From Actinostola sp. cb2023 (lineage: Eukaryota > Cnidaria > Anthozoa > Actiniaria > Actinostolidae): a DNA stretch of 64,000 bases. Shown here one piece after another: positions 11,001 to 17,000 of this stretch (positions are counted from its first letter, which is position 1; each line of letters starts with the position of its first letter). Below the pieces are notes generated by a model. That model did no database searches and was not told the origin of the DNA. It worked only from the letters and a program-made list of their open reading frames with translations. The stretch covers positions 62,001 to 126,000 of the forward strand of contig JAUJYZ010001328.1 of assembly GCA_033675265.1 (NCBI GenBank), written 5' to 3'. The translations under genes and the position numbers were made by a program.

Positions 11001-14000
11001 TGAAGGTTCAATTTTTAACTGGTTCAAATGTTCCACTGATAACAATTTCCTAATACATCCCTTTTTATAAATAGTCCAAGAAATACTAAAAGTCTCTCAT
11101 TTTTGCTAGTATAGTTGTATCATTTACTGGCAATAATCACTTACAGACTTTCGTGAATTAAAGGATTGTCCGAATTGATTCAGCCCGCATCGAAATTCTC
11201 AAGTGTTATCAGCATTGGTTTGCTGACTGTGTAGGAAGTAATTAGCGATACGCGTAAATCACAAATAACTCTTGGAGAACGCTGGAAATAGCATTTCCGA
11301 GCCTCTAGATTTCAAATTTTTCTGGGGGAGCATGCCCCCATACCCCCCTACCGGCTCACGCCTACGATGCTCGCTATGCGTCTCCTCCACCGCTTGGCCT
11401 TTGCTACTGCCCTGGTTCACTTTTGTGGACCAGTCAAAAAAAAAGGCTAGCTACGCTCCTGGTGTCAGCTCCTGGCGTCAATAAACACCGGGCCTGGACA
11501 ATTATAATCAGTCGACTCTATGATGGAGAATATATACCTTGAAAGAGCTTTATGATTATCCACCCCCCTTTGTAAAATCCTAGATCCGCCCATACTTGTA
11601 TAATGTTATTTTCAGTATTTTTGTCCTTTTAAAAATTCACTACTACATGTAGTTAAAAAATCGAATAACTAATTAACTCAATACACAGATTATAAATCCC
11701 TACACCAAGATATCATTCACATCCACAAAATATCTTTTTGACAGTTAGGATTTGTTTTCCTTGGGCGTAGGTCCTTGTGGTGGACCAAAAAAACTCTTGC
11801 TTGAACCGATGGAAAAAGTACCTGTGCGACAATGGTGAAACCTATACACCGAATTCATAATGGCGTATTCAGTTTTAGTTTGGCAATATAATACGTTTCT
11901 GGTACAAATGATCGCTGTCATCTAAAATAGTACCTATAGAAATAAACACTTAATTTGCTGTAGACAAAATATCATCGGAGTTATGACAGATCATGAATAG
12001 AGAGTTTTGTATGTATTTTTTCAAGTGAGTCCTCACCAGCGTTGTTTTGGTGCAATTTCACAATTTCAAATGTTGATATCTTCTCAAGGATTTATTATTT
12101 GGTTTCAAAACACACACATGGTATTTAGATGATCACATAAATATTCTATCAAATATTTACTTTTCCCAAAATGATATTTATTATTATTATTATTATATTT
12201 TTTTGCTTTTATGCAAATTAGAAGCAGCCAATTCGGAAACAAAAACCTAAAATATGACTTTCTTTCCTCCAGCCCCCCCCCCCCCCCCCCCCCCCCCCCC
12301 CCCCCCCCAATATTTAATGACCGGTCCCTTATTATAATTATTATTATACGATATTCTATCATCCTATACATCTACGGGATTTATCTACCGGGGTTTCCTC
12401 AAATAGCAAATCTCAGAACATTACCAGAATATGCCAGCTACTAAATCAATCTATCTAGAGTCCATCTACGGGATCTTCATCTTTGCTTACCGGGTTTTCT
12501 TTTGTAGCAATTATTCGAGACGGGATTTCTGGCAAGACGCAATTGCCTAACTGTCGACATAACGGACAAGTAAAGTCTCCATTTGTGGGGTTGAAGGAAT
12601 GCATCTGATGCAATTGTGCTGCTTCCTCCTCCTAAACAACACATACAGTTAGACTAACTACAAGGGAGCAAGGGTGGTCGAATGGTGCCTGGCTCAGACG
12701 CTTCCTCGATCCTCCTAAACAACACTGTTAGACCTACAAGGGAGCAAGGGTGGTCGTATCAGACGCTCCTCGATCCTCCTCAACAACACTGTTAGACTAA
12801 CTACAAGGGAGCAAGGGTGGTCGAATGGTGCCTGGTTCAGACGCTTCCTCCTCCTAAACAACACAGTTAGACTAACTACAAGGGAGCAAAGGTGGTCGAA
12901 TGGTGCCTGGTTCAGACGCTTCCTCCTCCTAAACAACACTGTTAGACTAACTACAAGGGAGCAAGGGTGGTCGTATGGTGCCTGGTTCAGACGCTTCCTC
13001 CTCCTAAACAACACTGTTAGACTAACTACAAGGGAGCAAGGGTGGTCGAATGGTGCCTGGCTCAGACGCTTCCTCCTCATAAACAACATTGTTAGACTAA
13101 CTACAAGGGAGCAAGGGTGGTTGAATGGTGCCTGGCTCAGACGCTTCCTCCTCCTAAACAACACTGTTAGACTAACTACAAGGGAGCAAGGGTGGTCGAA
13201 TGGTGCCTGGCTCAGACGCTTCCTCCTCCTAAACAACACTGTTAGACTAACTACAAGGGAGCAAGGGTGGTCGAATGGTGCCTGGCTCAGACGCTTCCTC
13301 GATCCTCCTAAACAACACTGTTAGACTAACTACAAGGGAGCAAGGGTGGTCGAATGGTGCCTGGCTCAGACGCTTCCTCGATCCTCCTAAACAACACTGT
13401 TAGACTAACTACAAGGGAGCAAGGGTGGTCGAATGGTGCCTGGCTCAGACGCTTCCTCGATCCTCCTAAACAATACATACAGTTAGACTAACTACAAGGG
13501 AGCAAGGGTGGTCGAATGGTGCCTGGCTCAGACGCTTCCTCCTCCTAAACAACACTGTTAGACTAACTACAAGGGAGCAAGGGTGGTCGAATGGTGCCTG
13601 GCTCAGACGCTTCCTCGATCCTCCTAAACAACACTGTTAGACTAACTACAAGGGAGCAAGGGTGGTCGAATGGTGCCTGGCTCAGACGCTTCCTCGATCC
13701 TCCTAAACAACACTGTTAGACTAACTACAAGGGAGCAAGGGTGGTCGAATGGTGCCTGGCTCAGACGCTTCCTCGATCCTCCTAAACAATACATACAGTT
13801 AGACTAACTACAAGGGAGCAAGGGTGGTCGAATGGTGCCTGGCTCAGACGCTTCCTCCTCCTAAACAACACTGTTAGACTAACTACAAGGGAGCAAGGGT
13901 GGTCGAATGGTGCCTGGCTCAGACGCTTCCTCGATCCTCCTAAACAACACTGTTAGACTAACTACAAGGGAGCAAGGGTGGTCGAATGGTGCCTGGCTCA

Positions 14001-17000
14001 GACGCTTCCTCGATCCTCCTAAACAATACATACAGTTAGACTAACTACAAGGGAGCAAGGGTGGTCGAATGGTGCCTGGCTCAGACGCTTCCTCCTCCTA
14101 AACAACACTGTTAGACTAACTACAAGGGAGCAAGGGTGGTCGAATGGTGCCTGGCTCAGACGCTTCCTCGATCCTCCTAAACAACACTGTTAGACTAACT
14201 ACAAGGGAGCAAGGGTGGTCGAATGGTGCCTGGCTCAGACGCTTCCTCCTCCTAAACAACACTGTTAGACTAACTACAAGGGAGCGCGAATGGTGCCTGG
14301 CTCAGATCCTCCTAAACAACACTGTTAGACTAACTACAAGGGAGCAAGGGTGGTCGAATGGTGCCTGGCTCAGACGCTTCCTCGATCCTCCTAAACAACA
14401 CTGTTAGACTAACTACAAGGGAGCAAGGGTGGTCGAATGGTGCCTGGCTCAGACGCTTCCTCGATCCTCCTAAACAACACTGTTAGACTAACTACAAGGG
14501 AGCAAGGGTAGTCGAATGGTGCCTGGTTCAGACGCTTTATGTGAGTAGAGTTTGTCAGTTCATCCGTTCTCTTCTTCAGGGCTGTACTTAACCCAAAATT
14601 CAAGGGGGGACAGTACGTATTTAACAGCAAAAAATAAATAAAAATAGTACAGTTCTCAGTACTTTTTGGTATCTTTTTCGCCCTGCTAGGGGGGCAACTG
14701 CCCCCCCTGCCCCTGTGCTGTGTACGGCCCTGTTCTTGCTTCGTTTTTGTCTTCTCTCGGATCTCCGGTTTTCCTCCCTCCATCAAGAATGAATTAACGA
14801 GATGAGGGTTTATAGAATATAGAATGTAGCAAAGAGTCGTGTACCCAAGCACTCACGTACCAATAGAGCAGATTTCGTATGACTGTGAAAAACTTACGGC
14901 ACGGACGTGCCGTGACCGTGATGATTTAGGATTTCGAATGAATCCGTGCCGTGACCGTGCCGTGCCGTGCGCCGTGGTTTTTCACAGTCATACGAAATTT
15001 GCTCTAGTACTTCCAAAGCCACTTGGCGCGTTAAAAAAGTTATTTAACAAACGTTCCTGTGGGAATGAGAGACTGACCTGAAGAGATCGTAGATAAGACT
15101 GCTGACAATCTACATGTAGATAGTGGCCACACGTTTGCACATGGATACCACCCTCGCATCCAGCCGGCGATGCGTCCAGACTATCGTCCTGTTTGAACAA
15201 ACAAGAACAAGAAACATTGATTTGAAGACGGCTCTCTGGTAGCCTGCGAATACAGCCGCTTTTTGGCGGTCGCGCCACAGGGGTCTCCCGCAAAGAAGGG
15301 AGACCCCTGTGACGCGACCGCTAAAAAGCGGCTGTATTCACAGGCTAGCTCTCTGGAAGAGCATCATGTTGTAAGATGATTACTCCATGTATGTTTAAAT
15401 AAAGAGTTTATAAGCACAAGGTGGATCAGGGTTGGTGCTCTGTACGCCGCAATAACAAGATGTCCGGGTGAGCAATAAGACACAGGAGAGGAAGGTATAA
15501 AGCTTTTAGAATATGCGTGGAGAACTGGTAACTAGCATGTTGTGTGGAGGATTGTGGGACTGTATTAGAGGATGCCATGACTGTCTATTTGCTGTAAAAC
15601 AAGGGGAAACATAAGAGCTGATATTGAAGTTACACCCCAATGAGTTTGAACAAAGGTTTCAAGGCTATCGGGCAAGTTTCTGTACATTTCTTGTACTTCT
15701 GACCCGGTAGCCTCGACTTGAAACCGCTGTTCAGAGTCATTGGAGTGTAACTTCCATATCAGCCATTGCTGTGTGCCAAACTCACTTCCATGGATACATC
15801 ACTAGGATAGTCAGTTTAGAATCAGTAAAACACTGCTACATTACACCTCCTTTGTCTAAAGCATTTTCAACCTTCATAACCCCTCCCCTCCTACCCCTCC
15901 CCTCTTCTTCTCCCAAAAAAAACAACAACACCCTTTATATGTCAGTCAGATTAGTCAGCGATAAACACGTTTTGTTGGGATCAGACGCAAGCAAGGAAAG
16001 TCTTAATAGACTATAAAGCTTCACTTTATCCACTATAAGAATTGATTCGATCAATAGCGCCATCTAAATGTATAGTTGAACTGGAAAACGTTCACTTAAT
16101 CCACTATAGAATTGCTTCGATCAATAGCGCCATCTAATAGTTGAACTGGAAAAACGTTCACTTAATCCACTATAAGAATTGAATCGATCAATAGCGCCAT
16201 CTAAATGTATAGTTGAACTGGAAAAACTTCACTTAAACTATACGAATTGAATCATCAATAGCGCCATCTCAATGTATAGTTGAACTATCACTTAACTATG
16301 AATTGATTCGATCAATAGCGCCATCTAAATGTATAGTTGAACTGGAAAAACGTTCACTTAATCCACTATAAGAATTGATTCGATCAATAGCGCCATCTAA
16401 ATGTATAGTTGAACTGGAAAAAAAAACGTTCACTTAATCCACTATAAGAATTGAATCGATCAATAGCGCCATCTAAATGTATAGTTGAACTGGAAAAACG
16501 TTCACTTAATCCACTATAAGAATTGATTCGATCAATAGCGCCATCTAAATGTATAGTTGAACTGGAAAAACGTTCACTTAATCCACTATAAGAATTGAAT
16601 CGATCAATAGCGCCATCTAAATGTATAGTTGAACTGGAAAAACGTTCACTTAATCCACTATAAGAATTGAATCGATCAATAGCGCCATCTAAATGTATAG
16701 TTGAACTGGAAAAACGTTCACTTAATCCACTATAAGAATTGAATCGATCAATAGCGCCATCTAAATGTATAGTTGAACTGGAAAAACGTTCACTTATCCA
16801 CTATAAGAATTGAATCGATCAATAGCGCCATCTAAATGTATAGTTGAACTGGAAAAACGTTCACTTAATCCACAGCGTTATCCATTTATTCCAGAGTCGT
16901 GCAGGTGTGTTTTCAAAACAAACGACTCTTTGCACTCAAACATTCAGTAGATCGCAAATAAATTCCTTGTATACAATACTAGTTTAATAAACTATGTTGT

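What the first reader, a model, noticed from the sequence alone, without database searches (positions are those of the whole stretch)
12491..14530. Minisatellite built from the exon 26 splice acceptor, about 25 decoy 3' splice sites
Each 75/79-bp unit carries, on the UBR3 strand, CTAACAGTGTTGTTTAG|GAGGA, the same as the true exon 26 acceptor and exon start. The array therefore offers about 25 near-identical acceptors in a row before a RING-encoding exon. Because 75 is divisible by three, the repeat frame stays open over long stretches, so exonisation of units is conceivable.
Basis: seen in the sequence. Interest (0 to 1): 0.8.

Follow-up and report, generated by a model that had tools for sequence, protein, structure and literature searches.

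The report
Splice-acceptor minisatellite in anemone UBR3
In a gene that looks like a sea anemone's, the stretch of DNA that marks where an exon begins has been copied about 25 times in tandem, giving a row of look-alike splice sites; similar arrays, called mirages, are known from lancelets, where splicing is reported to be unharmed, and this looks like one of them in a far distant animal.

Summary
The array is real: 25 tandem units (14533..12621), the last being the true acceptor plus 11 nt of exon 31 of a UBR3 gene (minus strand, 45-exon model; best relative Actinia tenebrosa). Of 24 upstream copies, 23 keep an AG and 22 keep TTTAG. Those 22 score 7.8-10.0 on a matrix trained on the gene's other acceptors (true site 9.3). 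They are not identical to the true site: 18 have a shorter branch-to-AG stretch. A 4-nt microhomology (AAGC) links the array's upstream edge to the exon, and the captured exon bases code EEEA, also present in Actinia and Nematostella, so the array grew from the exon border. As cassettes, 0 of 22 single units keep the frame; 45 of 231 pairs do. A donor-side example lies at exon 11. This matches amphioxus 'mirages', whose authors report normal splicing. Best reading: a passive, homogenised minisatellite tolerated because exon definition picks the last acceptor. No RNA data were available, and the genome search did not complete. New member of a known kind, apparently in a new phylum.

The parts
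12621..14533 (-). Minisatellite of 25 units (75/79/83 bp and four irregular ones), each with an acceptor-like block (branch-like CTAAC, T-rich tract, AG in 24 of 25 including the true site); the last unit ends 11 nt inside exon 31
12491..12631 (-). UBR3 exon 31 (141 nt, phase 0/0), EEEAAQLHQMHSFNPTNGDFTCPLCRQLGNC...
   Evidence: junction LRSLQ|EEEAAQLHQ aligned with 11 homologues
12632..12633 (-). AG of the true 3' splice site of intron 30 (CTAACTGTATGTGTTGTTTAG)
   Evidence: score 9.34, not used in training
15078..15188 (-). UBR3 exon 30, ends LRSLQ|gtcagt
12632..15077 (-). Intron 30 (2446 nt), most of it the array
14534..14537 (-). AAGC at the upstream edge of the array, matching AAGC in exon 31: probable microhomology of the founding duplication
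   Evidence: 4 matching bases left of the junction, 0 right
12621..12624 (-). AAGC inside exon 31, partner of the upstream AAGC
12700..12842 (-). The two units nearest the true acceptor are altered: one (78 bp) has TTGAG, acceptor 12779, score 3.95; the other is shortened to 65 bp, acceptor 12715, score 7.79
   Evidence: acceptors and scores; unit lengths, from which the limits are counted
13068..13142 (-). The only unit that has lost its acceptor AG (TTTATG at 13078)
   Evidence: limits counted from unit lengths
39568..39632 (-). Second junction-spanning array: 20-bp unit repeated 3.2 times over the donor of exon 11 (ATTGTATCTAG|GTAAGGGTGATTG), with the exon's last 8 nt inside the unit; use of the second or third donor gives a stop
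26347..27071 (-). 94-bp array ending 8 nt before exon 24, with repeated acceptor-like sites (8 sense sites at or above 5.16); TRF gives 26347-26860, the rest read by eye

Best explanation
This is a 'mirage': a minisatellite born by tandem duplication across an exon-intron border of UBR3 in a cnidarian, most likely a sea anemone. SHOWN: the units contain the 3' end of intron 30 and the first bases of exon 31; the upstream edge of the array and the exon share AAGC, and the final unit runs without a break into the exon. SHOWN: the captured exon bases code EEEA, which Actinia tenebrosa and Nematostella also have, so the exon came first. INFERRED: a slip or microhomology-joined duplication between the two AAGC copies made the first repeat; unequal exchange then multiplied and homogenised it (units 10-13 and 14-17 repeat the order 83-79-79-75, units 7-9 are 83-79-75; singular variants sit mostly towards the ends). 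INFERRED: splicing still uses the last acceptor, because it alone lies 141 nt from the exon 31 donor (exon definition), the two units next to it are altered, and in 18 of 24 units the branch-like A sits 13 nt from the AG (17 in the true site) with an extra AG beside it. Transcripts that use a decoy gain an early stop and would be expected to be removed by nonsense-mediated decay. So the array is a tolerated passenger with at most a small cost in mis-spliced RNA.
For: Unit anatomy and 25-unit count; AAGC microhomology, chance of 4 nt or more about 1.6% under a simple model; exon 30/31 junction with EEEAAQLH identical in Actinia and Nematostella and alignable in the corals (EEDAN, GEDAN), with no residues inserted at the junction itself; all 22 TTTAG decoys lead to a stop after at most 18 codons; a donor-side array of the same make at exon 11, with GATTG at both edges (sequence, compared by eye); [quoted passage not shown] PMC3902484, one passage).
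Against: No RNA, no second individual and no related genomic sequence was available. Four upstream decoys (12854, 13466, 13782, 14019) score above the true site, so matrix score alone does not explain why the last one should win, and three of these four also have the 17-nt spacing of the true site. A rule of 'first usable AG' would predict use of the upstream end of the array and a truncated UBR3. PMC3087553 itself notes that the repeated signals could be used as cryptic sites. The acceptor matrix rests on only 42 sites. Exon borders are not richer in repeats than intron interiors: 2 of 88 junctions have a near copy (26 nt, up to 4 mismatches, within 5 kb), against 5, 7 and 10 of 88 stretches 10, 20 and 40 nt into introns.
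Confidence: 0.78

Rival explanations
1. A splicing rheostat: the repeated acceptors compete with the true one, divert a fraction of transcripts into early-stop forms, and the fraction changes with copy number, so that array length tunes UBR3 dose.
For: 22 decoys in the strength range of real acceptors, 4 of them above the true one by matrix; all 22 lead to a stop after at most 18 codons; 23 of 24 copies still have an AG. A human case of VNTR length correlating with exon skipping exists (ABCA7, PMC5954066, abstract), though by another anatomy.
Against: No RNA evidence. Amphioxus mirages are reported not to disturb mRNA. Retained AGs can be explained by homogenisation. The units nearest the exon are altered ones.
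Confidence: 0.1
2. Exonisation of units gives UBR3 isoforms with extra residues before the second half of the RING.
For: Units carry a weak donor-like TGTA|GTTAGT 52 or 56 nt (37 in one) after the acceptor; 45 of 231 pairs of unit-exons keep the frame, and 1 of 19 adjacent runs of four.
Against: Single units 0 of 22, triples 0 of 1540, adjacent pairs only 5 of 21; extended exons 0 of 206 array-region AGs other than the true one; none of the 11 homologues aligned has residues at the junction that resemble the units (two corals have 4 and 2 extra residues further downstream, unlike the units).
Confidence: 0.03
3. Assembly artefact: the array or its copy number was created or inflated in assembly.
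For: Copy number of a 1.9-kb array of 98% identical units cannot be checked without reads.
Against: 12 distinct units, irregular ones (65, 65, 70 and 78 bp) at defined places and an ordered pattern of lengths are not what simple duplication of a read overlap gives; many other arrays of different units lie in the same gene.
Confidence: 0.06
4. An unrelated intronic repeat, for example from a mobile element, which happens to abut the exon.
For: The gene is full of tandem arrays and, by eye, element-like inverted sequences. Whether the unit occurs elsewhere in the genome could not be tested.
Against: The terminal unit contains 11 nt of coding sequence whose residues recur in two other anemones and runs continuously through the junction; no Rfam match at gathering threshold in 12000-15400.
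Confidence: 0.03

Closest known systems
Amphioxus 'mirage' minisatellite of globin gene BflGb6 (PMC3087553; passages read)
   Same: [quoted passage not shown] many units carry splice signals; homogenised within the cluster, boundary units left out.
   Different: Units 150-160 bp and 3 or 6 copies there, 75-83 bp and 25 units here; lancelet there, cnidarian here; RT-PCR done there, none here.
Amphioxus Adh3 mirages (Canestro, Roser, Albalat 2002, as cited in PMC3087553; the paper itself is not held)
   Same: Tandem repeats over exon-intron borders, units of 10-72 bp as quoted; the donor array at exon 11 here (20 bp) falls in that range.
   Different: Length and somatic instability reported there; not testable here.
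Lancelet PGBD5 tandem repeats of 60 and 108 bp over splice sites (PMC3902484; one passage read)
   Same: [quoted passage not shown] authors infer accurate splicing.
   Different: Imperfect, few copies (the 108-bp one is a triplication).
ABCA7 intronic VNTR in humans (PMC5954066; abstract and outline only)
   Same: Intronic array whose length correlates with splicing of a nearby exon.
   Different: The abstract does not describe units holding a splice site; the effect is exon skipping.
Intron gain by tandem genomic duplication (potato RdRp, PMC4974935; search listing only)
   Same: Tandem duplication linked to splice signals.
   Different: There an intron gain is claimed; here the duplicates stay inside an existing intron.

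Membership tests
Mirage minisatellite (as used in PMC3087553) | Tandem repeat that spans an exon-intron border | tested here: met
   Last unit includes 11 nt of exon 31; array 14533..12621
Mirage minisatellite (as used in PMC3087553) | Many units carry AG or GT splice signals | tested here: met
   23 of 24 upstream units keep an AG, 22 keep TTTAG
Mirage minisatellite (as used in PMC3087553) | Concerted evolution inside, boundary units left out | tested here: met
   Units 2, 5-18 and 20 (16 of 25) are exact copies of three types; the nine singular units are 1, 3, 4, 19 and 21-25. Read from the list, no tree was built
Mirage minisatellite (as used in PMC3087553) | Regular splicing not disturbed | not testable with these tools
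   No transcript data for this species; homologues show only that the normal junction recurs
Mirage minisatellite (as used in PMC3087553) | Length instability between individuals or cells | not testable with these tools
   One sequence only
UBR3 E3 ligase gene | UBR box at the N-terminus, RING and PRT6_C at the C-terminus, similarity to UBR3 proteins | tested here: met
   zf-UBR E 2e-20 and PRT6_C E 5e-66 (on two pieces of the model); UBR3 homologues for residues 1240-1600 (best 120 of 367 listed); 1958-residue open model over 45 exons. The RING has no Pfam hit and rests on the alignment
Poison-site regulation (NMD rheostat) | Alternative site leads to an early stop | tested here: met
   22 of 22 TTTAG decoys
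Poison-site regulation (NMD rheostat) | Alternative site is used in vivo and regulated | not testable with these tools
   No RNA data

The most novel reading that the evidence does not exclude
Splice-border minisatellites are a general by-product of animal genomes rich in intronic arrays, not a lancelet oddity, and this array of 24 spare acceptors works as a length-dependent splicing load: each added unit takes a share of UBR3 pre-mRNA into an early-stop form, so that array length, which may vary between animals and cells, sets the dose of an E3 ligase.
Probability: 0.1. Interest if true: 0.75.

Novelty: new member of a known kind. Interest (0 to 1): 0.42.

Why it matters
It is a natural version of the duplicated-splice-site experiment (known to me from recall), with 24 spare acceptor-like units instead of one, most with branch-like site, T-rich tract, AG and purine-rich exon start. 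Long-read RNA would show at once whether 3' splice-site choice follows nearness to the upstream donor or definition of the exon from its downstream donor. Together with the donor-side array in the same gene it appears to extend mirages from lancelets to a cnidarian and gives two cases in which a short shared sequence seems to mark the founding duplication.

Tried and rejected
Coincidental or element-derived repeat: rejected because the terminal unit holds coding bases whose residues recur in two other anemones. RNA gene in the array: no Rfam match at gathering threshold in 12000-15400.

Claim that arrays prefer splice junctions: mixed and post hoc. Junctions with a near copy are 2 of 88, against 5 of 88, 7 of 88, 10 of 88, 13 of 82, 15 of 80 and 14 of 72 stretches at 10, 20, 40, 60, 100 and 150 nt into introns, 39% of 3000 random intron stretches and 0 of 386 exonic ones. 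But array edges lie nearer to exons than in two crude random placements (within 60 nt 15 of 30 arrays, expected 3.8; touching an exon 2, expected 0.84, P 0.21; within 60 nt 15 of 30, expected 5.9, P 0.0002; touching an exon 2 of 30, expected 0.09, P 0.006). The 30 arrays were taken from the TRF rows by hand: rows were merged, several were widened by eye, and some rows (those at 51449-51526 among them) were left out, so I put little weight on this.

Other arrays as sources of strong decoys: of 14 minisatellites examined, besides the main one only the 42199-43764 array (17 sense sites at or above 5.16, two at or above 7.19) and the 26347-27071 array (8 and none) have several; on the antisense strand the 29470 array has 17.

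Not searched: the contig collections (viral, genome) and the phage, plasmid and E. coli collections, which hold no animal genomes by their description; metagenome scans were capped at zero.
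Full report
Gene and place. The minus strand from 54699 to 4219 carries a gene that I modelled by hand as 45 exons joining into 1958 codons without an internal stop. Pieces of its protein match the UBR box (zf-UBR, E 2e-20) and the PRT6_C domain (E 5e-66), and its best relatives for residues 1240-1600 are UBR3 of Actinia tenebrosa (66%), then Nematostella (55%) and corals (the best 120 of 367 hits were listed). The window is therefore from a cnidarian, most likely a sea anemone. One exon near 24.6 kb may be missing from the model, so exon numbers could shift by one.

The observation. Intron 30 (15077..12632) holds an array whose 25 units run 14533..12621. The last unit contains the true acceptor and 11 nt of exon 31 (GAGGAGGAAGC). 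Lengths are 79 (9 units), 75 (9), 83 (3), 65 (2), 70 and 78; mean pairwise identity is 98.3% over 300 pairs with gaps not counted, minimum 89.8%, with 12 distinct sequences. Of 24 upstream units, 23 keep an AG at the acceptor and 22 keep TTTAG; one reads TTGAG and one TTTATG.

Not quite the same acceptor. The true site is CTAACTGTATGTGTTGTTTAG. Eighteen upstream units read CTAACAGTGTTGTTTAG, which brings the branch-like A from 17 to 13 nt from the AG and puts an additional AG beside it (sequences, distances). Three units keep the longer form with one change, and one (12854) is the short form without the additional AG. That CTAAC is the branch site is inferred from the known consensus, not shown.

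Strength. A weight matrix trained on 42 other acceptors of the gene gives real sites a leave-one-out median of 7.5 (mean 7.2, range from 0.7 to 15.1), the true site 9.34, and the 22 TTTAG decoys 8.19 (17 units), 9.61 (3), 9.97 (1) and 7.79 (1). The true site ranks fifth of 239 AGs in the intron. Sites at or above 7.19 number 22 in the 1,906-bp array and 33 in 27,211 bp of non-array intron.

Frame. Exon 30 ends in phase 0. From there a 75-bp unit reads EEEASEPGTIRPPLLPCS-stop and a unit with the 4-nt insertion reads EDRGSV-stop; all 22 TTTAG decoys stop after 6, 13 or 18 codons. Used as cassettes with the weak donor-like GTTAGT, 0 of 22 single units, 45 of 231 pairs (5 of 21 adjacent) and 0 of 1540 triples keep the frame; of adjacent runs of four, five and six units 1 of 19, 0 of 18 and 0 of 17 do. 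Full retention of the intron stops after 29 codons.

Origin. Left of the array stands CATAAAGC, and the last unit ends GAGGAAGC in the exon: four bases match, the fifth does not, and none match to the right. In the protein alignment (11 homologues) the junction LRSLQ|EEEAAQLH is identical in Nematostella and nearly so in Actinia (LKSLQ|EEEAAQLH); the four named corals and two unnamed relatives have EEDAN, or GEDAN in Acropora; the two fish or frog proteins and the hemichordate differ here (LRNDQV, LRTEQI). No homologue has residues inserted at the junction itself; Oculina and Acropora have four and two extra residues further downstream. The exon start is thus older coding sequence, and the array took it up. 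The order 83-79-79-75 occurs twice and 83-79-75 once, and singular variants lie mostly towards the ends, as expected from unequal exchange.

Same gene, other borders. At the donor of exon 11 a 20-bp unit, with the last 8 nt of the exon and 12 nt of the intron, is repeated 3.2 times (39568-39632), again with a short shared sequence (GATTG) at both edges (the sharing judged by eye); use of the second or third donor gives a stop at codon 691. A 94-bp array (26347-27071) ends 8 nt before exon 24. Whether arrays favour exon borders is unclear: see Tried and rejected.

Known kind. Amphioxus 'mirages' are tandem repeats over exon-intron borders; [quoted passage not shown] PGBD5, Adh and TnC of lancelets are named in the same sense (PMC3902484, one passage). 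The original 2002 paper is not held. My searches listed no such array in a cnidarian, but they cover open-licence PMC papers only, several listed only the top 12 to 15 of many hits (15 of 1,413; 15 of 762), and only named sea anemones (no paper). So 'new phylum' is a statement about what I could see.

Mechanism. Most likely a passive mirage. The last acceptor should win because it alone makes a 141-nt exon with the donor at 12490, while the next decoys would make exons of 224, 288 and 363 nt, and the first two of these belong to altered units. This is inference from exon definition as generally known. The opposite rule, use of the first good acceptor after the upstream donor, would pick 14470 and truncate the protein within the RING. 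Only RNA can decide, and I had none.

Noticed in passing
36860-38588, minus strand: Intron 12 looks like a U12-type AT-AC intron: ATATCCTTTT at the 5' end, TTCCTTGACTCTGTAAAC at the 3' end (sequence); consensus recalled, not searched. It contains an 11-bp array (37074-38557).
   Followed up: partly
39568-39632: Donor of exon 11 repeated in a 20-bp array of 3.2 copies: a second mirage in the same gene.
   Followed up: yes
26347-27071: 94-bp array ending 8 nt before exon 24, with repeated acceptor-like sites.
   Followed up: partly
4655-54281 (introns of UBR3): The 30 arrays considered make up about 41% of intron length in this gene (18.3 of 44.6 kb); the large ones at 22893, 29470, 37074 and 49142 are G-rich on the plus strand, so C-rich in the transcript.
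   Followed up: partly
8760-8960, 9540-9740, 35540-35750, 43880-44090: Copies of an inverted-repeat element (ends GAGTCGTTTTCGTATGAGTGGGAA...), MITE-like; a similar one with different ends at about 14870-15010. Seen by eye only.
   Followed up: no
15240-15345 and 53050-53730: A palindromic sequence (around GCGAATACAGCCGCTTTTTGGCGGTCGCG), foldback element-like. Seen by eye only.
   Followed up: no
54868-55668, plus strand: Open frame without introns for a DNA alkylation repair protein (PF08713, E 1e-62), head to head with UBR3.
   Followed up: partly
17409-18518, plus strand: 369-aa open frame that by eye looks like a seven-helix receptor, inside UBR3 intron 29 on the other strand; no Pfam hit.
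   Followed up: partly
7400: Exon 38 appears to use a GC donor (CAG|GCAAGG) in the gene model.
   Followed up: no
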